From positions 11,701,837-11,765,836 of the forward strand of contig CANTUZ010000014.1 of the NCBI GenBank assembly GCA_947846985.1: DNA of 64,000 nt, read 5' to 3'. The notes under the pieces were generated by a model. It searched no databases, had not been told where the DNA came from, and was given only the letters and a program-made list of their open reading frames with translations. A program made the translations under genes and the position numbers. Positions 5,464 through 33,640 of the stretch are shown here, piece after piece (position 1 is the stretch's first letter; each line of letters begins with the position of its first letter). The DNA comes from Fratercula arctica (lineage: Eukaryota; Chordata; Aves; Charadriiformes; Alcidae).

Positions 5464-8400
5464 ATGGAGGAGGTGGATAAAATCCTGATCCACTCCCTGC
5501 GGCAGGCGGGGACGTGAGTGGGGCTGGGGGGGCTCTGGGGTGGGGGGGTTGGAGGCGGGGGGGGGCGTTTGGGGGGGCTCTGGGGTGGGGGGAGGTGGGA
5601 TGGGGGGGCGCTGAAGAGTTTTGGGGGGCCTGGGGGGCGGGGTGAGGACTGCAGGCGTGGGGGGGACCCCGGGGGAGGGGACACTGAGGAATTGGGGGTG
5701 GGGGGCGGACCCCTGGTAGATTTGGGGGGGGTCGCTGGGGGGGGTCCTAAGGCGTTTTGGGGGGTCTGGGGGGGACCCTGAGGAATTTTAGGGGGGCTCT
5801 GGGGGTGCCGGGGGGGGTGTCACTAACGGGGGCATGAGGAGTTTTGGGGTGGGGGGGGGGACCCCCTGGGGGCGTTTTGGGGGGGGTCTTCTAAGGAATT
5901 TGGGGGGGGGCATTGGGGGGGACCCTAAGGAGTCTGGGGTGGGGGGGGGGACCCCTGGTAAGTTTGCGGGGGGGGGTCCTTGGGGGGGGGAGGCTTAAGG
6001 AGTATTTTCGGGGGGGGACTTTTGGGGGGGGGGGGGTCCCTGGGGGACAGAAACCATTGGGGGGGGGGGGCAGGACTGGAGATGCCCCAGGGCGGGGGGG
6101 GGGGGGTGGGAAGGAAAGGGGGAATGGGGATTTTTAGGGGTGCTCTGAGGTTCGGGGGGGGGGGAGGAGGGGGCACGAATTTTGTGTGCCCCCCCCCCCC
6201 CCCCCCCAAGGGCGGTGCCCCCCGAGGTGCAGAGCGTGCGGGACCTGACCCCGGAGCTGGTGGTGGAGGCGGCCGTGCGCTGCCTGCGGGCCGTGCGCCC
6301 CGCTTTGGGGGCCCCCCTCAGCCCCCTCCTGCCCCCCGCCATCTCCGCCCGCTTCCGACTCGCCTCTGACCTGGCCGCCGCCTGCCAGGTACCCCCCCAA
6401 AAACCGCCGGGGAACCCCAAAATTTGGCGGGGGGGGCGCCACACAATGACACCCCCATCCATCCCCCCCAGGAGGTGGCATGTGGGGGCAATGTGGGGTT
6501 CCAAACCTTGGTTCCATCCCCCCAAAACCCCCAGATCTTAAAGAGGGACCCCAAAAATTTTGGGGTGACCCCTCCCAAGTCCCCTTCTCCCCCTTCCCAG
6601 GAGCTGGGATTCGGGGGGGAACCCCAAAATTTGAGGGGGGGGGCGCCACACAATGATACCCCCATCCATCCCCCCCAGGAGGTGGCATTTGGGGGCAATG
6701 TGGGGTTCCAAACCTTGGTTCCATCCCCCCCCAAAACCCCCCCAGATCTTGAAGGGGGACCCCAAAAATTTTGGAGTGACCCCTCCCAAGTCCCCTTCTC
6801 CCCCTTCCCAGGAGCTGGGATTTGGGGGGGGAACCCCAAAATTTGAGGGGGGGGGGGCGCCACACAATGACACCCCCATCCATCCCCCCCAGGAGGTGGC
6901 ATTTAGGGGCAATGTGGGGTTCCAAACCTTGGTTCCATCCCCCCAAAACCCCCAGATCTTAAAGAGGAACCCCAAAAATTTTGGGGTGACCCCTCCCAAG
7001 TCCCCTTCTCCCCCTTCCCAGGAGCTGGGATTCGGGGGGGAACCCCAAAATTTGAGGGGGGCGGGCACACAGCAACACCCCCATCCATCCCCCCCAGGAG
7101 GTGGCATTTGGGGGCGATGTGGGGTTCCAAACCTTGGTTCCACCCCCCCAAAACCCCCCAGATCTTAAAGAGGGACCCCAAAAATTTTGGGGTGACCCCT
7201 AACCTTCTTTGTGTCCCCCCCAGGAGCTGGGATTTGGGGGTGATGTGGGGTACCAGACCTTCCTCTACAGCTCCGAGCACGACACCCGCCGCCTCCTCCT
7301 CTTCCTGGTGGAAAAACTGCCGCGGGATGAGAGCGAGAGAGGGGCTGAACCCCCCGGTATGAGTTTGGGGGGGGGGGTGGGGGGGGGTGTCTCTTATTTT
7401 TGGGAGGGGGGGGGGGCTGACCCACCTCCTTGCCCCCCCCAGGGAAATCGGGGGCTCTGCTACGAGCCATCGGCGCCTGCATCCAGGAGCAGCTGGGGAC
7501 CCCCTGGGTGCCCCCCGCTTGCCGCACCCCGCGGCTGCAGCGCCTGCAGGTGAGTTTTGGGGGGGGGGGGGGGAGGGGCTGACCCCTCCCCTCCTTTAAG
7601 TTCTCCCCCCCCCCCCCCCTTAAGTTGGAGGGGGGCTAATTAAATGATTAATTAACTTTTTCAGGGCACTGGTTGTCTCCATCCCTTCACTACCTGCCCC
7701 TTAGTTCTACCCCAAAGTGGGGGACCCCCAGGTAAAGGCTGGGGGGGGGGGAGAAATTTGGGGGGGGGGGGGTGTCGTCCTTATTTTGGGGGGGGGTTGC
7801 TCTGCTCACCCCAGCTGTCCCCTCAGAGGTGCAGGAGTATTTTGGGGGGGCCGCCCCCCCAGTGCCGGCGCAGCCCCCCGTTTCGGCCAGGACCCCCCCG
7901 GCTTTGCTGGAGACCCACGCTGCCCAGCTCAGCGCCCGCCACGACTGGGAAGCCGAGTGGGGGGGCCCCGGCCTGGCCTCCCGCCTGCCCCCCCAGGTGA
8001 GACACCCCCCCCCCCCCCTTTTCCCGTGGGGGGGGGAGGGGGGGTGTCTCCAGGGGTCCCCAGGACCCCTGTGGGTCTCACCGCTAGGAGTTTGGGGGGA
8101 CCCCTTTCCCTGAGCCCTGGGAGTGCATGGAAGGGGATGGGGGGGGGGAAGGGGGTATTTTGGGGGTACCTGTGGGTCTGACCCCCCCCTTTCTCAGTCC
8201 CCCAGGAGTATGGGGGGGACATTTACGAGGGTGTTTTGGGGGTCTCCGTGGGTCTGACCCCCCACTTTCTCACCCCCCCAGGAGTATGGGGGGGACATTT
8301 ATGGGGCTGTTTTGGGGGTCCCTGTGGGTCTGACACCCCCCCCGGGTGGGGGGCTGTGGGGACATTTTGGGGGGGGAGGTCCCCTATGGGTCTGACACCC

Positions 8401-8938
8401 CCTTTGCCCCCCCACCCAGGAATATGTGGGGCGGAAGCGGCTCCGTGCTCGGCTCCGGGCCCTGGACCCCCTGCGCCAGGCCTGCCCCCCCCCGTCCCCA
8501 GGGACCCCCCCTGGGACCCCTGGACTCCGCTTGGCTCCAAGAGGCTTTTGGGGCTGGGGGGGGCGGGGGGGCCCTACCCAAGGGGTCCCGCTTCACCCGC
8601 ACCCAGCACCTGACCCACGAGCAGGTGGGGGGGGGGCTGCTGGGCATTGTTTTGGGGGGGGGGGGGGCTGGGGGGTGTTTTTTGGTGTCTGGGGGCTGTT
8701 TTTAGGGGGCCGGGGGGCTGCTTGGGGGGGCTGGAGGTTGTTTTGGGGGGGCTGCTGGAGGGCTGGGGGGTTGTTTTTGGGCGGTGGGGGGTGTTTTGGG
8801 GGGGTGGGGGTGTTTTTCAGGGGCTGGGGGTTGTTTCGGAGGGGCTGTTGGAGGACTCAGGGTTGTTCTGGGGGGGTTGAGGGGCTGCTGGAGGGCTGGG
8901 GTTTGATTTTGGGGGGCTGGTTTTCTTTTTTGGGGGAG

Positions 8939-8973
<35 letters not shown>

Positions 8974-11900
8974 AGGATCTGACCTGCTCCAGGGTCTCAT
9001 CCCACAGGACCCCCAAATCCTGCTGCAGCAGATCCAGGTGGCTGCCGAGACCTCAAAGAGCCCAGAGGAGGTAAAAAAAGTGGTGGTGGGGGTTTGTTAA
9101 CTCTGGCCCCTACTGATGGTGGTGGGGGGTTTGTTAACTCTGGCCCCTACTGATGGTGGTGGGGGTTTGTTAACTCTGGCCCCTACTGATGGTGGTGGGG
9201 GTTTGTTAACTCTGGCCCCTACTGATGGCTCTGTCAGGTGGGCGTTCACTCTGGCCCCTACTGATGGCTGTCGGGTGGGCGTTCGCTCTGGCCCCTACTG
9301 ATGGCCACATTTAGTAGGGGCTTCCCTCCCCCCCCCCTTCCCCCCCCCGCCCAGGACGCAGGGGCACGCCAGGCCAGCGAGGAGGCGGCCTTGGAGGAGA
9401 CCCTGGCCCAGCTGGAAGCCGAAATCGAAGGCTGCCGCAGGGAGGTGCGGGACGCCCAGCTCAGCCTCACCCAGGTGGGTGCCGGGGGGGCTTAAGGGGG
9501 TGGGGGGGGAGCAGTACGGGGTGGTTTTGGGGGGTCCCCTGATGGTGTGTGTCCCCCCCCCCAAGGCGGAGGCAGAGGTGCAGCAGGGCCGGCTGGCGCT
9601 GGGGGGCCGGGAGGACGCCCTGAGGCTGAAGGGGCGAGTGGTCGAGCTGCTCCCGGATGCTCAGAGCAACATGGCCAAGCTCCAGGTGAGGATTTTGGGG
9701 GGGGTGGGGGGGGTGGATTTTGGGGTACCCCAAGATTTCGGGGTGTCCCCCAGGGGGGTGGGGGGCTTTGGGGGGGTGTGTGTGAAGCTGTTTGGGGCCA
9801 CAGCGAGCGCAGGGAGGGGGGTTTGGGGTGTACAACTGGTGGGAGAGGGGAGGGAAGGGGGGATGTGGGCATTTTGGGGGTGCTGGGGGGGGCCGGGGGG
9901 GGGGCCGGGAAGCATTTTTGGGGATGCCCTGACCCTGCTTCCAGTTGGTGGTGGAGGCCAGTAGCCGCCGCATCGTCAGCCTGGCGGGGCAATGGGAGCG
10001 GCACCGGGGCCCCCTCCTCGCCGAGTATCGGCACCTCCGCGCCCTGCGCGACTCCGCTCAGGTACGTTGCTGGGGGGGGGGGGACCCTGGGGTCTGTCCC
10101 CCACCACTTCTTGGAGGGGTTTGGGGATCCCCAAGTCCCTTCCTAGTAGGTTTTGGGGGGCTCTGGGGTCCACTTCCCAGTGGCTTTGGGGTGCCCAGGA
10201 CCCTTCCCAGTGGGTTTTGGGGGTCGCAGGTGCCTCTCCGGTCGATTTTGGGGTCCCTGGGGGCTTTGGGGTCCCCTTCTCTGTGGATTTAGGGGTCCCC
10301 CAGTCGGTTTTGGGGGTCCCTGGGGACTTTGGGGTCGCATTCTCGGTGGGTGTGGGGTGCCAAGATCCCCACAAAGTGGGCTTTGGGGTCCCCTTCCCAG
10401 TGGGTTTGAGGGTTTCCCAGTCCCCCCCTTCATAGGTTTTGGGGTTCCCTGGGGACTTTGGGGTCCCCAGGTCCCTCCTCAATGGATTTTGGGGTCCCTG
10501 TCTGGGGTCCCCTTCCCAGTGGATTTGGGGTGCCCAGGCATCCTTCCCAGTGGCTTTGGGGGTCCCCAGTCCCTCCCCAGTAGGTTTTGGGGGTCCCTGG
10601 GGTCCCCTTTCCAGTGGGTTTGGGGTCCCCAGTCCATCCCTAGTAGGTTTTGGGGGTCCCTGGGGGCTCTGGGGTCCCCTCCTCTGTGGGTTTGGGGGTC
10701 CCCAGGTCCCTCCTCAATGGATTTTGGGGTCCCTGAGGCTCTGGGGTCCCCTTCCCAGTGACTTTGGGGTGCCGAGGTCCCCCCAAAGTGGTTTTGGGGT
10801 CCCTTTTCCAGTGGCTTTGGGGGTCCCCAGGTCCCCCCAGAGTGGGTTTTGGGGGTCCCCAGTCCCTCCCTGGTAGGTTCTGGGGTCCCCTTCCCAGTGG
10901 TTTTGGGACCCCGGGGTCCCCTTCCCGGTAGTTTTGGGGCTCTGAATCCCCTTCTTGGGGGTTTTGGGGGGGGGTGCGTGTCCCCGTTTTGGGGTGCTCC
11001 CCCCCCCCTCCCCCCCCAAATTCCTACCCCAGCTGGAATCGTCGCGGCGCCTGTCGGAGATCCGCACCCTGCACGAGCGCAGCCGCTCGGCCGCCGCCGA
11101 AGCCCGTCGCAAAGAAGAGCTGTACAAACAACTGGTGAGCACCCACGGGTGAAGGGGGGGGGGGGGTGTCGTGGGGGGGCTCAGGGCCCTCCCCCCCCCG
11201 AAATTCACCCCCCCACCTCGATGCAGGTGGCGGAGCTGGAAGCGCTGCCCCGGGACGTCTCCCGCGCCGTTTACACCCAGCGCATCCTGGAGATCGTGGG
11301 CAACATCCGCAAGCAGAAGGAGGAGATCGGCAAGGTTTGGGGGGGGGGGGGGGGGGCGCACAAAATTTTGGAGGGGGCGCTGGGTGGTTCTTTTTTTTTG
11401 GGGGGGGGGGGGGCAGAGGAATTTTGGGGGGAGCCTAACCCTTGGAGGGAGAGTTTTGGGGTCCTTAAAGGAGATCTGGGGGGGGGGGGGGGATGTGTTA
11501 GGTCCTCTTTGAGGTGTTGGAGGTTTTGGGGGGGGGGCACCCTGAAAATGAGGGGGGGGGGGGTTGGGGGGGTGTCCCCCCCCCCATTCCAAGCCCTGAT
11601 ACCCACCCCCCCGGGGTGTGGGGGGGGGGTTTCTCCCCAGATCCTGGTGGACACGCGGGCGCTGCAGAAGGAGATCAACTCCCTGGTGGGGAAGCTGGAG
11701 AGGACCTTCAGCGTCACCGATGAGCTGCTCTTCAAGGTCGGGGGGCGGGGGGGGGGCGCGGGGGGGGCCCTACATGCTCTTGGGGGGGTACCTCGGGGTG
11801 GGGGCAGGGGCCCCCAGGGGGATCAGGGTGGGATTTTCGGGGGGGGGGGGGCACGCAGGGGCGCCCCCTCTATGGGATGACCCCCCCAAAAAAGGGGAAT

Positions 11901-12744
11901 TTGCGGCGCTGGGACTCCCCCAAAATGTTGCATGACCCCCTCCCCCCAACTTTCCTGTGTCGTCCCCCCCCCCCCAATTTGTCCCACATGTGTCCCCCCC
12001 CGAATTGTCCTATCAACCCCCCCCAAATTGCCCCCCATGCCCCCCCCCCACGCAGGACGCCAAGCGGGACGAGGTGGTGAGAAAAGCCTACAAATACCTG
12101 GCGGCTCTACACGAGGTAAGGGGGGGGGGGGGGAAGGTTTGGGGGAGCCCCAGTGGACTTGGGGGGACAGTAGAGAGGCAGGAGGGGGGGGCTGAAGGTT
12201 TTTTTTGGGGGGGGGGTCACTCGCACTGCCCCCCCCCCCCCCTTTTTGCCCCCCCATCCCCAGAACTGTGCCCAGCTGATCCGCACCATCGAGGACACAG
12301 GGACCATCCAGAGGGAGATCCGGGACCTGGAGGAGCAGGTGGGGGTCTGGGGGGGGGGGGGCGGGGCAGGATATAATTGGGGGGGGGGCAAGAATCTGGG
12401 GTGTCCCTGGGGGCCCCCCCAGTACTAATGGGGTATTAATTAACCTCTGGTGTCACCCCGTATTGCCCCCCCCGCCCCAAATGTTTATGACCCTCCCCAA
12501 CTCTCGGTAACCCCAACCCTTTCCTCCCCAAACTTTGCCCCCCCCCCCCATTTTGTGGGGTTTCCCCCTAATTTTGGGGCCCCCCCCCCCAAACTTAACA
12601 CTCCCCCCGACCCAATTACCCCCCCCCCAGATCGAGGGGGAGACGAGCGCGAAGCCCCCTGCCAGCCTCGACCGGATCCTCAGCGACTGCCGGGTGCTGC
12701 GGGAGGAGAACGCCATGCTGGCGGCACGAGCCCGTCACGCCTGA
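5464..12744 (+). CDS. CCDC22: CCDC22, CCC/COMMander complex subunit
   Basis: Scaffold of the CCC complex (with CCDC93 and COMMD proteins) acting in endosomal recycling, and in NF-kB regulation through cullin-dependent IkB turnover. Seventeen exons: 5464-5513, 6211-6388, 7224-7356, 7443-7549, 7665-7731, 7827-7996, 8420-8624, 9008-9070, 9355-9474, 9566-9685, 9945-10061, 11033-11134, 11227-11334, 11641-11736, 12056-12115, 12264-12338, 12631-12744. All join in phase except exon 7, which is 205 bp where 204 is needed. Corrected length is 627 codons, equal to human as I recall it. The N-terminal calponin-homology-like (NN-CH) region starts MEEVDKILIHSLRQAG; the C-terminal half is coiled coil (RDVSRAVYTQRILEIVGNIR, KAYKYLAALHENC). 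Orthology is supported by collinearity with human throughout and by both neighbours. Confidence 0.96.
6420..7215 (+). repeat. Four tandem copies of a pseudo-exon unit, CCDC22 intron 2
   Basis: Units of about 205-214 bp begin near 6471, 6678, 6892 and 7097. Each contains a polypyrimidine-AG followed by 'gaggtggcat..gggggcaatgtggggttcc', and most have a second acceptor-like 'cccaggagctgggatt'. These resemble the true exon 3 acceptor and first codons at 7222-7270 (ELGFGGDVGYQT versus EVAFGGNVGFQT in the copies), so the array looks like tandem duplication of the exon's 5' end. Confidence 0.8.
8640..8935 (+). repeat. G/T-rich tandem repeat, CCDC22 intron
   Basis: Repeats of 'ggggctgggggttgttttgg' between exons 7 and 8, ending in a C-run of about 30 bases (8941-8973) just before the acceptor region. 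Confidence 0.75.
9080..9305 (+). repeat. ~40-bp minisatellite, CCDC22 intron
   Basis: About six copies of a unit containing 'aactctggcccctactgatg' and 'tggtgggggtttgtt', lying between exons ending 9070 and starting 9355. Confidence 0.9.
10120..10965 (+). repeat. ~45-bp minisatellite, CCDC22 intron
   Basis: Repeated 'ttttgggggtccctggggac' and 'ccccttcccagtgg' modules fill the intron between exons ending 10061 and starting 11033. Open frames here are Gly/Trp/Phe-rich repeat products. Confidence 0.85.
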
Positions 12745-13023: not shown

Positions 13024-16000
13024 TCAGCTCCGGGGGGGCAGAAAGTCGCAATCCCTGTGGGGGAAGTTGGGGAGGGGGGGGAAGGTTTAGAGAGAAACTT
13101 GATGTTTTTCAGGATGGTTTGGGGCATTTTGGGGGGGGGTTAAGCCCCCACCCCCGGGTTTTGGGGTCCCCGGGGGGGGTTTTGGGGTGCGGGGGGGGGG
13201 GGGGGGCGTTTTGGGGGGGGTACCTGGGGTAGCGTTGGCCCTGTTTGCGCCTGAATTCGGCCTCGTCCACTGTCCAGACGGCCCCTCGCACGTTCTCCAC
13301 TCGCACGAAGCACTTGTGCAGGCTCAGGTTGTGACGAACGGCATTCTGGGGGGGGGGGGGGGCACCCCAAAAATTTGAGTGGGGGCTCCCCCCCAAATTC
13401 CCTGAGGAATTTTGTCGGGGGGGGGGGGGTGGGGTGTCTGGGGCATTTTTCGGGGGGCGTTGGGAGAGCTTTGAGCTGTTGCAAGGCGTTGCAGGGTGGT
13501 TGGAGAGGCTCTGGGAGGGTTTTGGGGGAGGGGGTTTTTGGGGGGGGCCCCGGGGGGGGGGGGTAAATTTGGGGAATTTGGGGGGGGGTGTGTCGTTCCC
13601 CCCCCCCGAGTGGCAACATTTTGGGTTTCTGGGGGGGAGGGGGGTGGTGGGAACCAAGAGTTTTGGGGTTCCCCCCTTTCCCAGTGATGGAGGGAAGGGA
13701 CCCTGGGGATGGGGGGGGGGGGATATTCCCGTCTCCTGGGGAGTTGGGGTGCCCCCCCCCGAAGTTGGGGTGAGGGGGGGGGATTTGGGGGGGTCGGGGG
13801 GGGGTTGGGGGTGCAGGGGGGGGTGGTCTCTACCTTCCAGGTGGCCGTGTTGTGGCGGAAGTACCCGAACATGTGGCTGAACCAGTGGTAGATCTCGCCC
13901 AGGGTGCGCTGGCGCTGGGGGGACTCCAGGATGGCCTGAGGGGGGGGCCACACACACACACATTTTGGGGGGGGGGGACACAGGACATTTTAGGGGGGGC
14001 ATGAGAGGGTTGGGGGGGGTCTGTGGGGACATTTAGGGAGGGCACAAGACGGTTGGGGGACACTTGGGGAGGCATGGGGACAGTTAAGGAGGGTTTGGGG
14101 GGGACATGGCGGGGTACAAGGACACTCTAGGGGGTCTTTTTTTTGGGGGGGGGCACACGGGTTTGGGGACACTGTGGGGGGGGGTATGGGGACACTGTGG
14201 GATGGCCTGGGGGGGGGGTATGGGGACACATGGGGTGCTGGGGGGGGGCACAGGGGAATGGTGGCTTTGGGGACATTTTGGGGGGGGGGTATGAGGTTAT
14301 GGGGGGGGAATATGGGGTGGGGGGGTCATGGGGACACGGGGGGGGTTGGGGACATGTTGGGGGGGGCAAGATGGGGGGTAATAGAGGGCGGCTCTGGGGA
14401 CATGGCTGGGGGGGGGGGGCTTCCGATCAAGAAGGAAGTGGGAGGGGAAGGATGTGGGGGGGGCGGCATATAGCATGGGGGGTGTAGGGTACATGGGGGG
14501 GGCATAGGGGACACGGGGGGGGGCTATAGGGGACACGGGGCGGGGGGAGCACTCACCCAGCGAATGAGCATGGCGTAGGTGTAAGGGGGGCGGGCAGTGC
14601 TGACCCTGTAGTACTCCAGTTCTGGGGGGGGAGGGGGGGGGGCAAAGGGGGGAGGGTCAGTGGGGACCCAGGAATCTGGGACACCCCCCCCCCCCGGCTA
14701 TTTTGGCGGAGGTCTCCCCCCCCCCCCCCCCCCCCAAAACTGGGGACTCACCTGGGCAAAGCCCCCCATGGTCCCAAGGGTGCCCCGGCGGGGGCAGCGG
14801 GGTCTCGGGCTCCGCCTCGGGGGGGGGTGGACGGCCCCAAACTGGGGGGGTCCCAGCCTGGCCCTTCCCGGGGGGGCCCTGGGGGGTGGGGAGGACACAC
14901 ACACCCCCACCGGTGAGGGGCTGGCAGCACCCTGGGGGGGGTCCCAGCCCCAGTTTTGGGGTGTCGTGTCCCCCCCACCAAAGCCCTTACCGTCGTGGGG
15001 GGGCCCCTCCGGATGAGCTGCGCCTGCAATAGCCCCAGGCGGTGCCGCTCGCGGGCCAGCTGGGGGGGGGGGACAGGTTTGGGGGGGGGCACGGGGGGGG
15101 GCCACAAGGTTTTGCGGGGGGGCATGTGGAGGGGGGAACACATGGGTTTGGGGGGGATGGTTTGGGGGGGGCTTTGGGGGGGGCACAGGGAGGACACAGG
15201 TTTGGGGGTGACATGGGAGGGGGCTGGGAGGTACAAAGGTTTGGGGGGGCATAGAGAGGACACGGGTTTGGGGGTGACATGGAAGGGGTCTGGGGGGGCC
15301 ACAAGTTTGGGGGGGGGCACATAACGGGGCGGGGACAGGGAGGAAATGGTTTGGAGGGGGCAGGGGCATCAGTTTTGGAGGGTGGACATGGGGGGGTACG
15401 GGCTTGGAGGGGGGAACGTCGTGGTTTTAGGGGGCCACAGGACACTTGGGGGGGGCCCTGGGGGTGTTGGGGGGGGAATTGGGGGGGTGTCGGGGTGTGA
15501 TTTTGGGGGGGGGGGGGCAGGAATTTTGGGGGGCCCCCCTCCTCACCTGCTGCTCCAGCTCCTGGATCCTCTCCAGCTGCCGCAGGCACTGGGCCACCTC
15601 CCCCAGGTCACAGCGGGGTGCCCTGGGAGGGGGGGGACGACATAATTTTTGGGGGGGGGGGGGCATAAGGACACCCCCCTCCCCTCCCACTAAGGGACCC
15701 AGGCACCCGGGCCCCACTCACCTGGGGGGCTGAGCAGCGCTGGGGGGGTCGCTGCCAGCGGGGGCGGGCGAAGGGGCTCGTCCGGAGGGGTCTTTGGGGC
15801 TCCATTCAAAACTGGGGAGACCTGGAAGAGGTTTGGGGGGAGGACGGGGGGGGGGGGACACACGCACAAAATGAGGGGGGGGGGGCACAAAAAAAGAAGG
15901 GGGGGGGTGTCACAAAAGAAGGTGGGGGGAACGTTTTGGGGGGGGGGGCTTACCATGCGCCGGGGGGAGCCGCGTCCTCATCACCAGCACCCCGGGGTGA

Positions 16001-16203
16001 TGGATGTGCACGAGGGGGGGGCACGACGCCCCCTCGGGCGGCACCTGTATAATTTGGGGGGGGGAAGAAGAGGTGAACCCCCCCATCCTGATGCATCCCC
16101 CCCCCCCCCCCTCTGGGCTGCGTGTCCCATCCCCCCCCCCCCCCCAAACCTGGGTGCGCCGAGGGACCCCCCCGTCTCCGCGGGTCAGCACCGTGGGGCG
16201 ATC
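13024..16203 (-). CDS. FOXP3: Forkhead box P3 (avian FOXP3), N terminus unresolved
   Basis: Lineage-defining nuclear transcription factor of regulatory T cells. Ten exons join in phase: 16203-16150, 16044-15954, 15821-15722, 15622-15547, 15059-14991, 14878-14752, 14621-14557, 13935-13834, 13345-13224, 13054-13024 (278 codons plus stop). The segments follow human FOXP3 in order: [27 protein letters not shown]; leucine zipper ([26 protein letters not shown]); linker ending HPWDHGG; forkhead ([53 protein letters not shown]). LIRW, QRTL and YHWF are FOXP3-type rather than FOXP1/2/4. The short last exon gives [10 protein letters not shown], like the short human tail. The C2H2 zinc finger expected before the zipper is absent. 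The position between CCDC22 and PPP1R3F matches human. Confidence 0.92.
13390..13820 (-). repeat. Low-complexity FOXP3 forkhead intron
   Basis: Intron between the exons ending 13834 and starting 13345. It holds irregular G-runs on the + strand and no recognisable exon. Pro-rich open frames on the - strand are a consequence of the composition. Confidence 0.6.
13945..14550. repeat. GGGGACA/TATGGGG tandem repeat, FOXP3 intron
   Basis: Units of 'ggggacacgggggg' and 'ggtatggggacactg' on the + strand fill the intron within the forkhead-coding region. No coding similarity seen. Confidence 0.75.
15065..15500. repeat. ACAGGTTTGGGGG tandem repeat, FOXP3 zipper intron
   Basis: Repeats of 'cacaggtttggggg' and 'gacatggga' separate the two leucine-zipper exons (15622-15547 and 15059-14991). 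Confidence 0.75.
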
Positions 16204-16394
16204 CTGGGGGGCGCGGGGGGGGGCGGCGTTGCCTGGGGGGGGGGGGCAGCAGGGAGAGAGTGAGCCCCCCTCCCCCCCCCAGATTGTGCGACACGAGCGT
16301 GCGAGGCCTTGGGCGCGCGTGCGAGGCGCCTCGCACGAGGGCCCTGCGTCATGGCAAGTCCCGGCGCGCACACGTGGGTGGGGGGGACAAACGG

Positions 16395-16426
<32 letters not shown>

Positions 16427-16429
16427 CAT

Positions 16430-17150
16430 CCCAGTATCTCCCAGTATGGACTGGGCCCACTCCCGTCCTCCACCTGGACCCCCCTGTCCCATCTACAGAC
16501 ACTCTATGCAGCTCCCAGTTCATCCCAGTCCCTCCCCAGTTCACCCCAGTGCCCCCAGTCCCTCCCAGTGTCTACCCAGTTCATCCCAGTATCTCCCCAG
16601 TCCCTCCCAGTGTCTCCCCAGTTCATCCCAGTGCCCCCCAGTCCCTCCCAGTAACCGCCCAGTCCTTTCCAGTGTCTCCCCAGTTCACCCCAGTGCCTCC
16701 CAGTGTTCCCCCAGTCCCTCCCAGTAACCCACCAGTCCTTTCCAGCGTCCCTCCCCAGTCCCTCCCAGCACCCCCCAGTAAACCACAATCCCTCCCAGGT
16801 CTTTCCAGTACCTCCCAGTCCTTTCCCAATCCCTCCCAGTTCCACCCAGTGCCCTCCAGTCCACCCCAGATCCATCCCAGTATATCCCAACACTCCCCAG
16901 TTCATCCCAGTCCCCACCCAGTGCCTCCCAGTGCTCCCAATCCCTCTCCCAGTCCTTCCCAGTCCCTTCCAGTGCTCCCAATCCTGCTCCCAGTCCTTCC
17001 CAGTCCCTCCCAGTGCTCCCAATCCCGCTCCCAGTCTCACACAGTCCTTCCCAGTGCCTCCCAATCCCACCCAGCATCACCCTGGTGCCCCCCAGTGTGC
17101 TCCCAGTGCCTCCCAGTCCTTCCCAGTGCCTCCCAGTGCCCCCAGCTCAC
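16430..17150. repeat. CCCAGT minisatellite in FOXP3 5' region
   Basis: Dozens of 'cccagtccctcccagt' modules; the - strand reads ACTGGGAGG. It lies between the candidate first exon (17170-17151) and the first secure FOXP3 exon (16203-16150), where the human gene encodes most of the proline-rich repressor domain. I see no N-terminal exon inside it. Confidence 0.9.
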
Positions 17151-17170
17151 AGGTCCCGGGTGCCCGCCAT
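17151..17170 (-). other. FOXP3: Candidate first coding exon of FOXP3
   Basis: An ATG in good Kozak context (gagccATGG) at 17170 opens a 20-nt stretch, MAGTRD plus two bases, ending at a strong GTGAGC donor. The phase (2) does not match either acceptor of the next recognised exon (16203 needs phase 0, 16232 needs phase 1). An intermediate exon, a base error, or a different start must therefore exist. It sits 35 bp downstream of a TATA box. Confidence 0.4.
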
Positions 17171-17204
17171 GGCTCTGGGCGACACCCGGGCGCCTCCACC
17201 CGCG

Positions 17205-17240
17205 ATTTATAGACGGGAAACCACAGCCCTGAGTCATGGC
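17205..17240 (-). promoter_or_regulatory. TATA box and AP-1 site of FOXP3 promoter
   Basis: TATAAAT on the - strand at 17211-17205, with a perfect AP-1/TRE site TGAGTCA at 17230-17236 just upstream. TATA promoters are rare in this CpG-rich window. Human FOXP3 is also known for a TATA-containing, AP-1/NFAT-responsive promoter. Confidence 0.65.
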
Positions 17241-17329: not shown

Positions 17330-18330
17330 ACAGACACCCCAAAACGCAGAGAAATGCCCCAAAATGGCTGGGAACAGGCACCTCGAAATGGGCCAGGATG
17401 AGACGCCTCAAAACGCGGAGAAATGCCCCAAAAAGATCAGAGAGAAATACCTGAAATTGGTCGGACACAGACACCCCAAAACGCAGAGAAATGCCCCCAA
17501 AAGACCAGGCAGAAACACCCAGAATTGGTCGGACAGACACGCCAAAAAACAGAGAAATGCCCCAAAATGGCTGGGCAGAGATACCCCAAAAATGCCGTAA
17601 AGAGACACCTCAAAATGCAGAGAAATGCCCCAAAACAACCAGGCAGAAACACCCGGAATTGGTCGGACAGAGACACGCCAAAATGTAGAGAAATGCCCCA
17701 AAATGGCCAGGCAGAGACACCCAAAAATGGCCGTAAAGAGACACCCCAAAATGAGGAGAAATGCCCCAAAACGACAAGGCAGAAACATCCCAAATTGGCT
17801 GGACAGAGAAATCGCACAAAGCGGAAAAATACCCCAAAAATATCCAGGCAGAGACACCCAAAAATGGACACAAAAAGACACCTCAAAATGCAGAGAAATG
17901 CCCCAAAATGGCCAGGCAGAAACACCATAAATTGGCCTGGCAGAAATACCCCAAAATGAGGAGAAATGCCCCAAAATAACTGCACAGAGACACCCAAAAA
18001 TGGCCAGAAAGAGCCACCCCAAAACACAGAGAAATGCCCCAAAAACGACCAGGCAGAAACACTCCACAATGCAGCAAAATGCCCCAAAACAGCCGGGCAG
18101 AGAAACCCCAAAAAACAACCAGGCAGAAACACCCCAAAAACGGGCGAAATGCCCCAAAACCCAGTGCTGGATGGTGACCCCCCCCCCCCATACCAGGAGC
18201 ATCACCCCCATTTCCATACCTCAAAACACCCCAAAATGCCCTAAAATGCCCCAAAATGCTGTTGTCGGAAAAAGCAGCTAAAACACCTCCCAAAAAGCCA
18301 GGAAATGCCCCCAAATGGACCCAAATCCTT
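17330..18330. repeat. ~66-bp A-rich minisatellite upstream of FOXP3
   Basis: About 13 units, each with 'gagaaatgccccaaaa' and 'aggcagaaacacc' modules. On the - strand it gives long Phe/Leu/Cys-rich open frames that mimic membrane proteins; these are artefacts of the repeat. Confidence 0.9.
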
Positions 18331-19690: not shown

Positions 19691-21491
19691 TGGCCCGGCC
19701 GCCCGCCTCCGCCCCGGCGCCCCCCCCTTGGCCGGACTCCCGGCATGCCCCGCGCCGGGGGGGGGCCCCTTCCCAGCCTGCCCCGCGGCCGGCGACCCCC
19801 CCCTCACCCCCCCCCTTGGACCCCCCCGTCCCCCCCCCAAGCCCCCGTCCCCCCCCTCCCCGACGACGGGTCCCCCCCCCACACATCACCCACCCCGGAC
19901 GCCTGGCTGCCCCCCGCCTCGCCCCTCCCGGACGCCTGGGTCCCTTTGGGGGACCCCCACCCCAATTTGTGCCCCCTCCCGGGGGACCCCGACACCCCTC
20001 CGGCCCCCCCGGGAGGTGGGGGGGGGGTCGCGGAGGGTCCTTTTCGCCGACGCTTTGGGGCTCCCCCTCACCCGCCTGCGGCAATACCGGCCCTGGGACC
20101 CCCGGGGGCGGGGGGGGCCCCCGGGGGAGGGCGGCGGGGGGGGGCAGGGGGGGCACCCCCAGGGTGGGGAGGGGGGCGCGGGAGGGGAGCAGCCCCCCGG
20201 GAGCTGGATGAGGCCTGGGAAGGGCAGGTAAGGCATGGGGGGAGGGGGGCCACCAAAATTGGGTCATCACACCCCCCCCCACCTGCATGTGCCCCCCTCT
20301 AAATTGCCCCCCCCCCCCCCCCCCCCACAAATGGGGTCAACACCCACCCCTGCATGTGCCCCCCCGCCCAAATTGGGTCATCACCCCCCCCTTTTGCATG
20401 TGAGCCCCTAAATTGGGGGGGGGGGCCCAAAATGGGGTCAACACCCCCCCACTGCATGTCCCCCCCTAAATTTGGGGGGGGAGGTGTGTGTGTCTAAAAT
20501 AGGGTCAACCCCCCCCCCCCCCCCGGCATGTTTCCCCGCTAAACTGGGGGGGACACTAAAATAGGGTCAACCCCCCCCCACGTGTTGCCCCCCAAAATTG
20601 GGAGGGGGGCTATGGGGCATGCCTGGGTCCCCCAAAATGTGGTCACCCTTAATTTGGGGGGGGGGGACGTTTAATTGGGGGGGGAACTTAATTTGCAGGG
20701 GGGGTGTGTCCTCTCTGGTGACACCCCCCCTTTGTGTCCCCCCCAGAAGGCCACAGGAGGCAGAGGACACACAGCCTCCACCCCCCAACCACGGCGCAGG
20801 TAAGTATTGCCCCCCCCCCCCCCAAATTTTAAGGGGACCCCCCCAATTTAGGGGGTCCCCCCCAAATTTAGAGGGTACCCCCCCCAATTTCAGGGGGTAC
20901 CCCACCTCACCCCCCCACTTTTCTTCCCACAGAACCCGACCCCTCCCCAAAGCCCCCCCCGGATGCAGAGCCGCCCCCGGCACAGGTGAGCCACCCCCCC
21001 CCCCAAAAAAATGGGGTGCCCCCCCCTTTTTTGAAGGGGGGGTACCCCAAAATCTTGCCCCCCCCCCCCAACAGGGCGCCGAGGAGGAGGCGGTGGCGCG
21101 GGAGCTGGAGCAGCTTTACCTCTCCCACCTCCGCCGGCTGCGGGGGGAGCCCGGCGATTTTGGGGACCCCCCCCCGAAAAACGGGGGGGCCCCATTCCCC
21201 GAACGAGCCCCCAACACCTCGTTAGCTAATGAGATGGCCTTGCGTTATGAGGGAGGGGGGGGCCGCCGCAGCCCCCCCGTTTTGTTAGGGAGGGGGGGGC
21301 CGGTGGAGGGGGCTTTGGTGGTGCCGGCCAGGCCCCCCCGGGGGCGAGGGGGGGCCCTGGGGGGGGCCCTGAGGGGGTGCGGGGTGGTCTTGGCCTTGGC
21401 CGTGCTGGTGCCGGTGGCTTGGGGGGACGGGGGGGGCCCCACGGCTGCCCTGGCCTTGGGGCTCTACCTGGCACTGGCCTGGCTCACATGA
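19690..21491 (+). CDS. PPP1R3F: Protein phosphatase 1 regulatory subunit 3F, short form
   Basis: Targets PP1 to glycogen-metabolising enzymes. Exons: 19690-20227, 20747-20799, 20933-20985, 21075-21491. Near the end of exon 1 is the PP1-docking RVxF motif in RRVLFADALGLPLTRLRQYR, closely matching human. The C terminus has LEQLYLSHLRRLR, LANEMALRY and a membrane anchor (VVLALAVLVPVAW, ALALGLYLALAWL). Exon junction phases agree (2,1,0). Two oddities: ATG 19690 (MARPPAS, like human MART) is in a different frame from RVLFAD, implying a one-base error between them; and the CBM21 glycogen-binding domain is absent, although exon 1 joins exon 2 in frame. Length would be about 350 codons against about 800 in human. 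Confidence 0.82.
20280..20600 (+). repeat. ~60-bp repeat in PPP1R3F intron 1
   Basis: Four or five units with 'ggggtcaacacccccc', 'tgcatgtgcccccc' and 'aaattgggg'. This intron is where CBM21-coding exons would be expected. Confidence 0.8.
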
Positions 21492-22060
21492 AAGGGGGTG
21501 GCCCCCAAAATGTGCCCCCCACCCCCCATTTCCCACCCCCTTCCCCGAATTCCCCCCCTCCCCAAAATTTTCACACCTTCCCCCTTCAAATTTTCACCAC
21601 AAAACTGGGGGGGGGTGGGGAGCTTATCGAACTGCACCCCCAAATTGCCCACCCCCCTCCCCCCCCCGCAGGCATTTTGTGGGACACCCCCCCCCGGCTC
21701 GTGTGTGCCCCCCCCATTTTTTGGGGTGCCCCCCTGTGTATATACAGCCATAGAATGATGGTCTCCCCGAGTCCTTGTGGGGGTGATTGCGATGGTGGCG
21801 GGGGGGGGGGGCTTTTGGGGTGTGTGTGGGGGTACAGGGTTGCTCTCCCCCCCCCCCCCCCCCCCCCCTTTCGCTGTCGCAGCCGTTTCCTGCCCCCAGG
21901 GAAGGTCCCCAGCAAAGGTCACAGGCGCTCTGGGTGACAAACAGCCCCCCCATGCCTGCCCCCGGGAGATTTGGGGGGGGGGGAGGGGGGGCTGGCTTTC
22001 TGCAGAGGAGGAGGGGGGGGCTCACCCTTGGTGTCACATCGTGGCCTCTGCGTTGCGATG
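21492..22060 (+). other. PPP1R3F 3' region
   Basis: C/G-rich sequence after the PPP1R3F stop. I find no AATAAA close to the stop and no further exon; 'tgtatatacagccatagaatg' (about 21737) is the only AT-rich stretch. Confidence 0.4.
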
Positions 22061-23203: not shown

Positions 23204-24862
23204 CATGAGCGGAGCGGCCTCCCCCCGGCCCAAGCTCCGCCGCATGGGCGCGCCCACCGGGACCGACCTGGCCGCTGTCGCCGTCGTGGCCCACCGGGGG
23301 ACGTCGTCGTTTCCCCTCCCGCCGGAGGTGGCGGCGAGGGCCGCGGTGCGCATGCGCGAAGCGGCGGCGGGGAACGACGGGCACGCGCGGAGCGCCCCCT
23401 GGCGGGCGGCTGGAGAGCGCGGCTTCCTGGGGATCAAGGGGGTCCTGGAGACCACCAGAAAGGTCACAAGGAGCCTAGAGAACACCATGGGGCCCAAGGG
23501 GAGCCTGGAGACCGCCAGCGAGGCTAAGGGGGGGGCCTGGAGACCGCCAGCGAGGCTAAAGGGGGGGCCTGGAGACCGCCAGCGAGGCTAAGGGGGGGCC
23601 TGGAGACCGCCAGCGAGGGCTAAGGGGGGGGGGGGGCCTGGAGACCGCCAGCGAGGCTAAGGGGGGGCTGGAGACCGCCAGCGAGGCTAAGGGGGGGGCC
23701 TGGAGGACCGCCAGCGAGGCTAAGGGGGGGGGGCCTGGAGACCGCCAGCGAGGCTAAAGGGGGGGGGGGGCCTGGAGACCGCCAGCGAGGCTAAGGGGGG
23801 GGCCTGGAGACCGCCAGCGAGGCTAAGGGGGGGGGCCTGGAGACCGCCAGCGAGGCTAAAGGGGGGGGGGCCTGGAGACCGCCAGCGAGGCTAAGGGGGG
23901 GCCTGGAGACCGCCAGCGAGGCTAAGGGGGGGGGCCTGGAGACCGCCAGCGAGGCTAAGGGGGGGGGGCCTGGAGACCGTCAGCGAGGCTAAGGGGGGGG
24001 GCCTGGAGACCGCCAGCGAGGCTAAGGGGGGGGCCTGGAGACCGCCAGCGAGGCTAAGGGGGGGGGCCTGGAGACTGCCAGCGAGGCTAAGGGGGGGGCC
24101 TGGAGACCGCCAGCGAGGCTAAGGGGGGGCCTGGAGACCGATGCTTCCTTCAGGATCTTAAGACCACCATGGGTGCCAAGGGGAGCCTGGAGACCGCTGC
24201 CACCGGCCGCTTGGAGCAGCACACAAAGAGGAAGGGGAGCCTGGAGACCACCAATGGGTGCAAGGGGAGCCCGGAAACCACCAGAACCCATCGCTTGGAG
24301 CAGGAGAGAAGGAGCAAGAGGGGGCTTGGAGACTACCAGCAGGTACAAGGGGAGCCTGGAGACCACCAGGCTCTCTCCTCCAAATCAAGGAGGAGCTATA
24401 GCCGAACCCACCGCAGTTCTGAGTGAGGGGACTCCCAAAAGGTCAGTTGGGGGGGGGCTGTGGGGGGCACGCTGGGGTTTCGGGGGGGTGCAGGGGAAGG
24501 AACACCAAAGTTTTGGGGCCCCTCCCTCCGGCTAAATTTGTGTGTCCGCCCCCCAGCGAGAGCAGGGAGGGCTTTGTGGTGATCGTGGATGATGACAATG
24601 TGCAGGAGGTCCCTGATGATGGGGACAGTAAGTGACCCCCTCCGGGGGTACCCCAATATCTCTCACAGGGGGAAATGGGGGACTGGGGGCCCCCCCAGTT
24701 CCCCCCTGCCCCCCCTCCCAAGTCCTCTTGGGGGGCAGGAGAGGCTGACTTTGTGTCTCCCCTCCCCAGGCAGTGGCGTGGAAGAGATCCTGACTAAGGA
24801 GCCCCCCCCAGCCCCCCAACTGGGCAGACAGACCCCAAAGGGGGCAGAGATTAATTAGGGAA
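23204..24862 (+). CDS. Unrecognised gene with SUMO-interaction-like C terminus
   Basis: I do not recognise this family. The 5' part, from ATG 23204, reads MSGAASPRPKLRRMGAPTG then an Ala/Arg-rich stretch ending in a KGxLETTR repeat at about 23420. A minisatellite follows (to about 24140), then a coding-like stretch with more KGSLETT/RLEQ repeats to a GTGAGG donor at 24422. Exon 24557-24627 joins in phase (GA|C) and encodes SREGFVVIVDDDNVQEVPDD, a hydrophobic core plus acid run typical of SUMO-interacting motifs. The last exon, 24770-24862, encodes SSGVEEILTKEPPP..EIN and a stop. Two clean splice junctions and a poly(A) signal support a real transcript. Whether the minisatellite is exon or intron is unclear, because its variable G-runs break the frame. 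Confidence 0.6.
23347..23405. promoter_or_regulatory. NRF1 site and CTCF core motif
   Basis: TGCGCATGCGC at 23347-23357 is a perfect NRF1 palindrome. AGCGCCCCCTGGCGG at 23391-23405 differs at one position from the CTCF core. Both lie within the first exon region of the unrecognised gene, just before its minisatellite. Confidence 0.65.
23420..24145 (+). repeat. ~31-35-bp minisatellite inside unrecognised gene
   Basis: Roughly twenty units of 'cctggagaccgccagcgagg' plus 'ctaagggg' with a G-run of 6-11 bases. The flanking sequence contains diverged versions of the same unit (encoding GSLETT) on both sides, so the array expanded from pre-existing exon-like repeats. Confidence 0.9.
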
Positions 24863-25126
24863 GCAGCTACGACCCCCCCCAAGGCACTGTGGGTAACGAG
24901 GGACTGCCCCCCCCCCCCCCAACACAGCTCAGGGTGTTTGTCAGCCTTGAACCACACCCCCCCCCCCCCCCCATGAACCCAAAAACCTCCCCAACTCCTT
25001 ACCCCCCCCCCACCCAAATCCCCACCAGCCAGGGGGGAGAAACGTAACCCATTTAGGTCCAGTTTTGTACATTTTGGGTCAAAAACACGACAAATTATCT
25101 TTTTATATCTAAAAATATATTATTAT

Positions 25127-25132: not shown

Positions 25133-25215
25133 GATTTAATGGGGTACAAAGGCTCCCCCAAGCCCCAGCAGTGGGCAATGATGTCAGCGGGGGAGTGTGT
25201 GCATTTTAGGGTGCT

Positions 25216-25221
25216 TTTATT
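25216..25221 (-). terminator. Poly(A) signal of NUDT16-like gene
   Basis: AATAAA on the - strand, 9 bp beyond the stop codon at 25230, giving a very short 3' UTR. Confidence 0.7.
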
Positions 25222-25229
25222 CCTTTAGG

Positions 25230-26495: not shown

Positions 26496-26559
26496 GGCGG
26501 CGCCGTAACGCCGCGCCTCCGCCAATCAGCGAGGGGGTGGGATGGGGAGGCCGCCAATC

Positions 26560-27203: not shown

Positions 27204-30287
<3,084 letters not shown>

Positions 30288-31577: not shown

Positions 31578-33640
31578 TCAGGGCTGCATCCGGAGGGCCC
31601 CGTCCAGCCTCACCACCTCCCCGTTGACCATGGGGTTCTCCGCCAGGGCCTGGACCAGGTGGGCGTATTCCGCCGGGTGCCCCAAACGGGAGGGAAAAGG
31701 CACTTGTTGCCCCAAAAAATTCCGCACTTTTTCCGGCAAACCCGCCAACAGAGGGGTGGAGAACAAGCCTGAGGAACCCCGAAAGGAAAAGGAGGTTGAG
31801 TTTTGGGGGGGGGGGAGGGGGGGGGTTGTCCTCACCCGGGTTTGACCCCACCCACCCCGTCCCCCCGAGATGTCCCCCAAATCCTTACCCGGAGCGATGG
31901 TGACCACCCGGATCCCCAGCGGCGCCAGATCGCGGGCGATGGGGAGGGTCATGGCCACGATGCCACCTTTGGAGGCCGCGTAGGCGGCTTGGCCCACCTG
32001 AGGAAGACACGGGTCAACATTCTGGGGGGGGGGGGGGGGGGGTGTCCCCTTGTCCCCCCCTAACCCCCCCACCCCGAGGTGTTGTCCCCCATCCTCACCT
32101 GGCCCTCGTAGGCAGCCACGCTGGCTGTGTTGACCACCAGGCCGCGGTGGCCATCGGGGTCGGGCTTGTTGTGGCCCATCAGGCGGGCGCTCAGGCGGAT
32201 GACGTTGAAGGTCCCCACCAGGTTGACCTGGGGGGGGGGCAGAGGGTGGGGTGGGTCATGGGGACACCCCCAAATCCTGGGGACACCCCCATGGGTGGCC
32301 ATGGCGGGTCTGGGGACATCCTCGGCACCCCAAGGTCACCCCTTTGGTCAGGGATACGCCGTGAACCCCAACTCCAAGGTCACCACCAACCCCAAGGTCA
32401 TCACCAACCTCAAGGTCATCCCGTCAGCCTGGGACACCCCACAACCACCTTCCTGACCTAGGACACCCCACAACCGCCCCACTGACCAGGGACACCCCAC
32501 AACCACCCCACTGACACCCCACACCCACCCCTTTGACCATGGACACCCCACAACCACCTTCCTGACCTAGGACACCCCACAACCGCCCCACTGACACCCC
32601 ACAACCGCCCCACTGACCAGGGACACCCCACAACCACCCCATTGACACCCCACACCCACCCCTTTGACCATGGACACCCCACAACCACCCCATTGACACC
32701 CCACAACCACCCCTTTGACCACGGACACCCCACAACCACCTCCTGGACCTGGGATGCCCCACAACCACCCCACTGACCATGGTCACCCCACAAGCAACCC
32801 CTGGACCCGGGATGCCCCACAACCACCCCATTGACACCCACAACCACCCCATTGACACCCACAACCACCCCATTGACCATGGACACCCCACAACCACCCC
32901 ACTGACCATGGTCACCCCAGAACCACCCTGCTGACCTGGGACACCCCACAACCACCCCATTGGCCACGGTCACCCCACAACCACCCTGCTGACCTGGGTG
33001 GCCTCACATCCACCCCCTGGCCCTGGGACACCCCATGCCCGCCCCACGGCGGCCCCACTCACATTGATGACCCTCTGGAAGTCCTCCAGCTGGTGCACCT
33101 TGTCCTTCTTGCTGTTGTAGGTCTTGACGGCGATGCCCACCCCGGCGCAGTTGACCGTCAGGTCCAACCGCCCAAACTCCTTCTGGGCCAAGCTCAGGGC
33201 GGCCCCCACCTCCTCGGCCGATGTCACCTGCAGGGGACCCCATCCGGGTGGTCGTCACCACCCTTCGTTGAACCAAGCCAACCCCCCCCCCCCCCCCTTC
33301 CCCAACCGCCACCCATGGGTGCTCACGTCGGCGGGGGCGAAGGTGCAGCGGTCCCCCAGCTCCTTGGCCAGCTGGCCCCCAGGTGAGCTGGGCAGGTCCA
33401 GGAGGACCACCCGAGCTCCTTGGTCCACCAGTCGCTCCACCGTGGCTCGTCCCAGTCCCGAGGCGCCACCGGTCACCAGTGCCACCAGTCCCTAGGGCAC
33501 AAGAAAAGGGGGGGGGGGGAGGTCAGAGGGAAGGAGGGGACCCCCCCTTCCCCGTTCCAAAGGGTCCATGGGGGTCTCCTGGGGGTCTCCGAGGGTTCTC
33601 CGGGGGTTCCCGGTACCTTCACGCTGCGAATGGCCGCCAT
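31578..33640 (-). CDS. HSD17B10: 3-hydroxyacyl-CoA dehydrogenase type 2 (17beta-HSD10)
   Basis: Mitochondrial short-chain dehydrogenase: oxidises 2-methyl-3-hydroxybutyryl-CoA (isoleucine breakdown) and, with TRMT10C and PRORP, forms mitochondrial RNase P. Six exons in phase: 33640-33617, 33491-33327, 33227-33063, 32227-32099, 31997-31889, 31768-31578 (260 codons plus stop; human 261). The Rossmann glycine motif is [10 protein letters not shown], the NAD-binding NCAG follows, and the catalytic set is Ser in [11 protein letters not shown] and Tyr-x3-Lys in AAYAASKGG. The C terminus [13 protein letters not shown] is almost human. In human it lies next to HUWE1; here PFKFB1, the MAGE gene and GNL3L lie between them. 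A CCAAT box (33659-33663) sits 20 bp upstream of the ATG. Confidence 0.97.
32320..33020. repeat. ~28-bp minisatellite, HSD17B10 intron 3
   Basis: Tandem 'gacaccccacaaccacccc' plus 'attgacc' or 'actgacc' units. Val/Cys/Trp-rich open frames on - are repeat products. Confidence 0.92.

What the first reader, a model, noticed from the sequence alone, without database searches (positions are those of the whole stretch)
13024..17240. An intact-looking FOXP3 gene in a bird-like genome
FOXP3 was long reported missing from birds. Ten exons here join in phase, carry FOXP3-type forkhead residues (LIRW, QRTL, YHWF), a leucine zipper, and sit between CCDC22 and PPP1R3F exactly as in human. The surrounding G/C runs explain why such a gene would drop out of short-read assemblies.
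Basis: partly seen in the sequence, partly recalled or inferred. Interest (0 to 1): 0.9.

Follow-up and report, generated by a model that had tools for sequence, protein, structure and literature searches.

The report
Bird FOXP3 gene, already known
This is the bird version of FOXP3, the master gene of the immune cells that restrain immune attack; it was once thought absent in birds but has been reported since 2016, so here it is a good example of a hidden gene rather than a discovery.

Summary
The gene is real. Eleven minus-strand exons (17170-13024) encode a leucine zipper and a FOXP3-type forkhead. The best database matches are bird FOXP3 proteins (goshawk 90%, chicken 81%). It falls in a bird FOXP3 clade (100/98), and grouping it with FOXP1/2/4 is rejected (p-AU 0.00135). 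It lies between CCDC22 and a PPP1R3F-like gene; no second FOXP3 turned up in this 1.21 Gb bird genome.

Three corrections. (1) Not new: reported in 2016 (ground tit, falcons), then in chicken, and named FOXP3 in 18 bird species in the listed hits. (2) Not literally intact as assembled: exons 2-11 join in phase, but the ATG-bearing exon 1 does not. Exon 2 has one C too many, in a C9 or a nearby C6 run. CCDC22 next door has a similar one-base break, and the protein looks normally constrained, so an assembly error is likelier than real damage; no reads were seen. (3) The zinc finger of other FOXP proteins is absent, as in 49 of 49 sauropsid FOXP3 sequences tested by a strict pattern (some partial).

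Boldest unexcluded idea: a CpG-rich palindromic intron-1 element acts as an avian Treg switch or alternative promoter. Interest low.

The parts
17206..17236 (-). Putative core promoter: AP-1 type TGACTCA (17236-17230), RUNX type TGTGGTTT (17225-17218), TATAAA (17211-17206), within 66 bases upstream of the ATG
   Evidence: consensus matches only, motif names recalled
17151..17170 (-). Exon 1: ATG and 20 coding nt (M-A-G-T-R-D-L), donor GTGAGC
   Evidence: chicken and falcon FOXP3 begin MAGARDP
16257..16410 (.). CpG-dense segment in intron 1; the 117 bp at 16259-16375 have CpG o/e 1.02 (introns 2-10: 0.10-0.40); contains the window's longest perfect palindrome (20 bp, 16318-16337)
   Evidence: function unknown
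16150..16232 (-). Exon 2 ([10 protein letters not shown]...); one C more than the orthologous frame, in the C9 run 16223-16215 or the C6 run 16211-16206
15954..16044 (-). Exon 3
15722..15821 (-). Exon 4, proline-rich (G-L-P-S-F-E-W...); by position the exon that holds the first zinc-finger half in other FOXP genes, but no C-x4-C
15547..15622 (-). Exon 5, start of leucine zipper ([16 protein letters not shown]); no zinc-finger histidines
14991..15059 (-). Exon 6, rest of leucine zipper
14752..14878 (-). Exon 7, proline-rich linker
14557..14621 (-). Exon 8, start of forkhead (to L-I-R-W)
13834..13935 (-). Exon 9, forkhead (Q-R-T-L, Y-H-W-F)
13224..13345 (-). Exon 10, end of forkhead
   Evidence: the one exon of this gene that the Pfam Forkhead scan of the genome reported
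13024..13054 (-). Exon 11 with TGA; 3 residues shorter than in the other birds aligned
5464..12744 (+). CCDC22, 17 exons; exon 7 (8420-8624) changes frame inside, one base too many; its longest run is C9 (8485-8493)
19691..21492 (+). PPP1R3F-like gene, outline only: PP1-binding R-V-L-F stretch at 20013-20096; no CBM21 domain detected
27237..29658 (-). NAA10 (span of the matched stretches)
31581..33485 (-). HSD17B10 (span of the matched stretches)

Best explanation
The locus is the functional single-copy bird orthologue of FOXP3. Shown: an 11-exon gene whose protein has a leucine zipper and a FOXP3-type forkhead, no zinc finger, conserved neighbours, and few private changes in zipper and forkhead. 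Inferred from the family and from chicken data: the protein dimerises through the zipper, binds DNA with the forkhead and runs the regulatory T cell programme, from a TATA/RUNX/AP-1 type promoter directly in front of a tiny coding first exon. The one-base frame break in exon 2 is most likely a homopolymer-length error of the assembly.
For: Best protein hits are bird FOXP3s over 100% of the query. Window lies in the bird FOXP3 clade 100/98; FOXP3 versus FOXP1/2/4 split 99/95; p-AU 0.00135 against window + FOXP1/2/4. No second FOXP3 among 37 matches in the genome (best candidates only); FOXP4, FOXP1 and a third FOXP gene, presumably FOXP2, lie on C20, C11 and C1. Private changes at sites otherwise invariant among the birds aligned: zipper 0 of 31, forkhead 1 of 66, within the range of the other ten birds. 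CCDC22 in the same window also has one base too many, in an exon that reads through in all six relatives compared, and CCDC22 being broken in a living bird is unlikely (recalled: a conserved subunit of the Commander complex). Chicken FOXP3 RNA is found in CD25+ T helper cells and marks two of 23 splenic CD4+ clusters (PMC12716188, passages). A 274-aa bird FOXP3 frame sits on contigs of at most 3244 bases (P0004), which fits spliced transcripts (inference; the source label 'lgn' is not explained).
Against: As assembled, the start-codon frame stops in exon 4. Exon 4 lacks six residues (DR and QLPP) and exon 11 three that the goshawk has, and one basic residue after the forkhead is changed (R-R-K-Q for R-R-K-R). 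No read or transcript of this species was examined. Which run holds the extra base is not settled in either gene. Several bird FOXP3 models in the database are tagged LOW QUALITY PROTEIN, which I recall as marking models mended by the pipeline, so frame faults at this locus are common, for whatever reason.
Confidence: 0.85

Rival explanations
1. A real frameshift: this individual or species carries the extra C in exon 2, so the full-length protein is lost and at best a shorter one starting at the in-frame ATG of exon 3 (M-R-T-R-L-P-P) is made, still with zipper and forkhead.
For: The assembled sequence reads that way. The band-tailed pigeon model (P0013) begins at that same methionine.
Against: CCDC22 shows the same kind of extra base, pointing to a technical cause. 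Few private changes in zipper and forkhead.
Confidence: 0.1
2. A decaying FOXP3 pseudogene.
For: Frame break plus small in-frame deletions.
Against: All other exons open, all ten introns with GT...AG, zipper and forkhead as conserved as in other birds.
Confidence: 0.04
3. A FOXP1, FOXP2 or FOXP4 paralogue rather than FOXP3.
For: Forkheads of the four are alike; one bird relative (Calonectris, P0002) is named FOXP4-like in the database. The first tree did not separate the labels cleanly.
Against: Tree and AU test; the genome's other FOXP genes lie on C20, C11 and C1; CCDC22 next door.
Confidence: 0.005

Closest known systems
Avian FOXP3: Gallus gallus (P0008; UniRef A0A8K0ZUK2), Accipiter gentilis (P0001), Falco (P0005, P0006), ground tit (Denyer 2016)
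   Same: Start M-A-G-x-R-D in chicken and falcons, zipper, forkhead, no zinc finger; CCDC22/PPP1R3F neighbours as in Denyer's ground tit, which also has 11 exons
   Different: One extra C in exon 2, shorter exon 4, exon 11 shorter by 3 residues, R-R-K-Q after the forkhead
Mammalian FOXP3 (PDB 3qrf, 8sro; platypus P0048)
   Same: L-I-R-W, Q-R-T-L, Y-H-W-F forkhead, zipper, CCDC22/PPP1R3F neighbours
   Different: Mammals have a C2H2 zinc finger and a promoter about 6 kb upstream (PMC9887859, PMC4123481, passages); the bird gene lacks the finger, and its putative promoter abuts the first coding exon
Other FOXP genes of the same genome: FOXP4 (C20), FOXP1 (C11), presumably FOXP2 (C1)
   Same: Introns at the same places in the forkhead (FOXP4, FOXP1) and zipper (FOXP4)
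   Different: Both zinc-finger halves found on C20 and C1, first half only on C11; L-I-R-Q, Q-L-T-L, Y-N-W-F in FOXP4 and FOXP1

Membership tests
FOXP3 | Zipper and forkhead group with FOXP3 and not FOXP1/2/4 | tested here: met
   99/95, p-AU 0.00135 (20 rows, 3 of them FOXP1/2/4)
FOXP3 | FOXP3-type forkhead residues L-I-R-W, Y-H-W-F | tested here: met
   The W or R varies in squamate FOXP3, so this is a mark of most, not all
FOXP3 | Coiled coil / leucine zipper before the forkhead | tested here: met
   FOXP-CC matched from position 37 on at 18.1 bits, below Pfam's cut-off of 28.9, as in goshawk and chicken; aligned zipper conserved
FOXP3 | Forkhead at the C-terminus | tested here: met
   forkhead 165-240 of 260
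FOXP3 | C2H2 zinc finger (mammals, amphibians, fish) | tested here: not met
   Also missing by strict pattern in 20 of 20 birds, 1 of 1 alligator, 7 of 7 turtles and 21 of 21 squamate rows taken as FOXP3, so it does not define FOXP3 in sauropsids
FOXP3 | Synteny with CCDC22 | tested here: met
FOXP3 | Synteny with PPP1R3F | tested here: met
   R-V-L-F stretch, 69% over 29 aa to a recalled human N-terminus, E 1.6e-8 within the window; the CBM21 domain recalled for human PPP1R3F was not found there
FOXP3 | Complete reading frame from ATG | tested here: not met
   E1-E2 off by one base; probably an assembly error
FOXP3 | Expression in regulatory T cells | not testable with these tools
   chicken only, RNA, from PMC12716188 passages

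The most novel reading that the evidence does not exclude
The CpG-dense, palindromic segment in intron 1 (16257-16410), just before exon 2, is an avian counterpart of the mammalian Treg-specific demethylated region, or an alternative CpG promoter, so that birds keep an epigenetic FOXP3 switch in a gene compressed to 4 kb.
Probability: 0.1. Interest if true: 0.6.

Novelty: already known. Interest (0 to 1): 0.2.

Why it matters
A contiguous FOXP3 locus with promoter, introns and neighbours in a bird assembly lets regulation of avian Tregs be studied. The broader pattern, no zinc finger by strict pattern in 49 of 49 sauropsid FOXP3 sequences, extends what Denyer et al. left open for archosaurs and suggests that FOXP3 can work without it. 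One-base frame breaks in two neighbouring genes of one window warn that 'missing' or 'broken' bird genes in such GC-rich regions should be checked against raw reads before being called lost.

Tried and rejected
Alternative start codon at 16352 in the CpG segment: out of frame with the FOXP3 reading of exon 2. First forkhead tree (27 rows): FOXP1/2/4 did not form one group, because three fish proteins named FOXP1 (P0086, P0090, P0103) carry L-I-R-W and fall with Amia FOXP3. I judged them misnamed and dropped them; one search uses the bird's own FOXP4, FOXP1 from PDB (2kiu) and a recalled human FOXP2 instead, so its FOXP1/2/4 side has three rows only. Rows on which my extraction failed and which are not in the trees: Anser, Pelodytes, Conger; Amia, Hemiscyllium. 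Golden eagle as source species: its CCDC22 (P0164) differs at many places; the nearest CCDC22 listed was Mycteria americana at 93%. Species left unnamed. The strict zinc-finger pattern also misses 2 of 8 mammals, 3 of 5 bony fish, 1 of 3 cartilaginous fish and 5 of 9 amphibians; I did not look into why, so absence by pattern alone is weak and the Pfam comparison is the stronger test. The 20 birds are 20 of the 23 bird species I count in the list: Camarhynchus, Guaruba and Cyanocitta, two second isoforms and the unnamed P0004 were not given. Of 23 squamate rows, two (P0263, P0267) are FOXP1-type by L-I-R-Q and not counted; the other 21 I took as FOXP3 although several bear other names or none. 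CBM21 or other Pfam domains in the PPP1R3F-like gene and the gene at 23.2 kb: none found; CBM21 genome-wide: 7 matches, none on C14. dN/dS was not possible: no bird nucleotide relatives are held. Literature searches; (zinc finger, birds, reptiles; 6 papers) only Denyer 2016 was on the subject by its title.
Full report
What is there. On the minus strand, 17170-13024, I place eleven exons; all ten introns are GT...AG. Exons 2-11 read through without a stop in one frame. The 260-residue product of exons 3-11 matches Pfam Forkhead (90.5 bits) and the second half of FOXP-CC (18.1 bits, under Pfam's cut-off of 28.9, from profile position 37). Among solved structures its forkhead scores 150.5 bits with FOXP3 (8sro) against 144.2 with FOXP4 (6xat).

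Which gene. The protein search (810 hits, 120 listed) gives bird FOXP3s first: Accipiter gentilis 90%, two falcons 83%, chicken 81%, each over 100% of the query; then alligator 56% and turtles 47-56% for the full-length matches. In a tree of 133 zipper and forkhead columns and 20 rows, the window sits in a bird FOXP3 clade of 8 rows (100/98), and FOXP3 (17 rows) is separated from FOXP1/2/4 (3 rows) by 99/95. Holding the window with FOXP1/2/4 costs 29.87 log units, p-AU 0.00135. An earlier 82-column tree put the window in the same bird clade (96/96) but did not separate the labels, because of three fish proteins named FOXP1 that look like FOXP3; I dropped them. The same genome holds FOXP4 (C20) and FOXP1 (C11) with L-I-R-Q forkheads and zinc-finger exons on C20, C11 and C1, the last presumably FOXP2. 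Of 37 matches to the FOXP3 protein in the genome, those outside C14 look like other FOX genes (only best candidates are scored).

Neighbours. CCDC22 runs on the plus strand, 17 exons, 5464-12744. A PPP1R3F-like gene begins on the plus strand near 19691, recognised by the PP1-binding stretch at 20013-20096. NAA10 (29658-27237) and HSD17B10 (33485-31581), both minus strand, follow. Denyer et al. list cacna1f, ccdc22, ppp1r3f, naa10 and hsd17b10 around foxp3 in birds (PMC4777427; abstract and parts 1-3 of 5 of its main section read). Calcium-channel exons, CACNA1F by position, are visible at the left edge by reading, not by a search. The window is C14:11701837-11765836 of a genome of 1214569813 bases in 28 contigs; C14 has 14439572 bases. 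Bird origin rests on the protein matches.

The frame break. Exon 1 (ATG, 20 nt) joins exon 2 one base out of phase and the frame ends in exon 4. Chicken and falcons begin M-A-G-A-R-D-P and reach P-Q-D-R-P in one frame; Calonectris reads [12 protein letters not shown] and the goshawk Q-R-R-P-P-P-G-P-Q-D-R-P. The window gives the Calonectris letters with one C fewer in the C9 run 16223-16215, and a goshawk-like reading with one C fewer in the C6 run 16211-16206; I cannot tell which. CCDC22 exon 7 has the same kind of fault: its start and end lie in different frames, while all six relatives compared read through. In the two genes there are five coding G/C runs of 8 or more: FOXP3 E2 C9, E3 C8, E7 C9; CCDC22 E7 C9 and G8. 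Each break lies in an exon with a C9 run; the third C9 (FOXP3 E7) shows no break. The window has 464 G/C runs of 8 or more. I take the break as an assembly error, but no reads were available.

Constraint. Among 11 bird sequences (window plus ten), changes private to the window at columns otherwise invariant are: N-terminus 2 of 54, zipper 0 of 31, linker 0 of 15, forkhead 1 of 66, C-terminus 0 of 7. Gallus has 3 of 58, 0 of 31, 3 of 17, 0 of 65, 0 of 8; Pezoporus has 6 of 70 in the forkhead. The window row in that count had one C of exon 2 left out. The deletions in exons 4 and 11 are in frame. Without nucleotide relatives this is no dN/dS.

The zinc finger. FOXP-CC aligns from position 1 in platypus FOXP3 but from 37 in goshawk, chicken, alligator and a turtle and 31 in a skink, and from 37 in the window. 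A strict C2H2 pattern is found in 0 of 20 bird, 0 of 1 alligator, 0 of 7 turtle and 0 of 21 squamate rows taken as FOXP3, several of them partial. It is found in 6 of 8 mammals, 2 of 3 cartilaginous fish, 2 of 5 bony fish and 4 of 9 amphibians, so it also misses part of the groups that have the finger. Denyer et al. found no finger in ground tit or any reptile then available and called it an open question for archosaurs.

Regulation. Directly upstream of the ATG lie TGACTCA, TGTGGTTT and TATAAA. In mammals the promoter lies 6.2-6.5 kb upstream, with NFAT/AP-1 sites and TATA and CAAT boxes (PMC9887859 and PMC4123481, passages). Intron 1 here is 918 bases; 16512-17145 is a degenerate tandem array. 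A 117-base stretch (16259-16375) holds 16 of its 21 CpGs (o/e 1.02; 0.09 for 16376-17150) and a 20-base perfect palindrome, the longest in the window. Against special meaning: such CpG density is reached by 1.5% of 117-base windows, in 14 segments of the window; by position several of these lie at gene starts, one in a CCDC22 exon. A related stretch appears to be read as the protein start in the Accipiter and Calonectris database models (my reading). Function unknown.

Known or new. Denyer et al. 2016 reported FOXP3 in ground tit and two falcons, with GC content as the reason for its absence elsewhere. Chicken FOXP3 (Burkhardt 2022, not held) and FOXP3 RNA in CD25+ T helper cells are described in PMC12716188 (passages), whose authors say that immunosuppressive function is still undetermined. 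PMC12954441 lists FOXP3 among recovered hidden genes (passages). The window is a further example. Because the protein database is clustered at 90% identity, I cannot say whether this exact sequence is already deposited.

Noticed in passing
window 8420-8624: CCDC22 exon 7 changes frame inside the exon, one base too many; the longest run in it is C9 (8485-8493).
   Followed up: yes
window 19691-21492: PPP1R3F-like gene: R-V-L-F stretch and a C-terminal hydrophobic segment, but no CBM21 domain in the translated pieces scanned, and none on C14 among 7 CBM21 matches in the genome; start codon and R-V-L-F lie in different frames.
   Followed up: partly
window 16257-16410: CpG-dense segment with a 20-bp perfect palindrome and four TCGCAC/GTGCGA copies in FOXP3 intron 1.
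   Followed up: partly
FOXP3 forkhead, exon 9 (13935-13834): Q-R-T-L is shared with mammals, while alligator and two turtles have Q-L-T-L and a skink Q-L-S-L, so the arginine may have arisen separately in birds and mammals.
   Followed up: partly
P0086, P0090, P0103, P0002: Database names look wrong: fish 'FOXP1' proteins with L-I-R-W that cluster with Amia FOXP3, and Calonectris FOXP3 named FOXP4-like.
   Followed up: partly
window 16512-17145 and 17332-18070: Tandem arrays (CCCAGT-type units in intron 1; a 68/136-base unit upstream of the gene), reminiscent of the intron repeat expansion described for chicken dot chromosomes (PMC12954441, passages).
   Followed up: no
window 23206-24900 and 25200-26550: Further unannotated genes by eye (one plus strand; one minus strand with a NUDIX-like box); not identified.
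   Followed up: no
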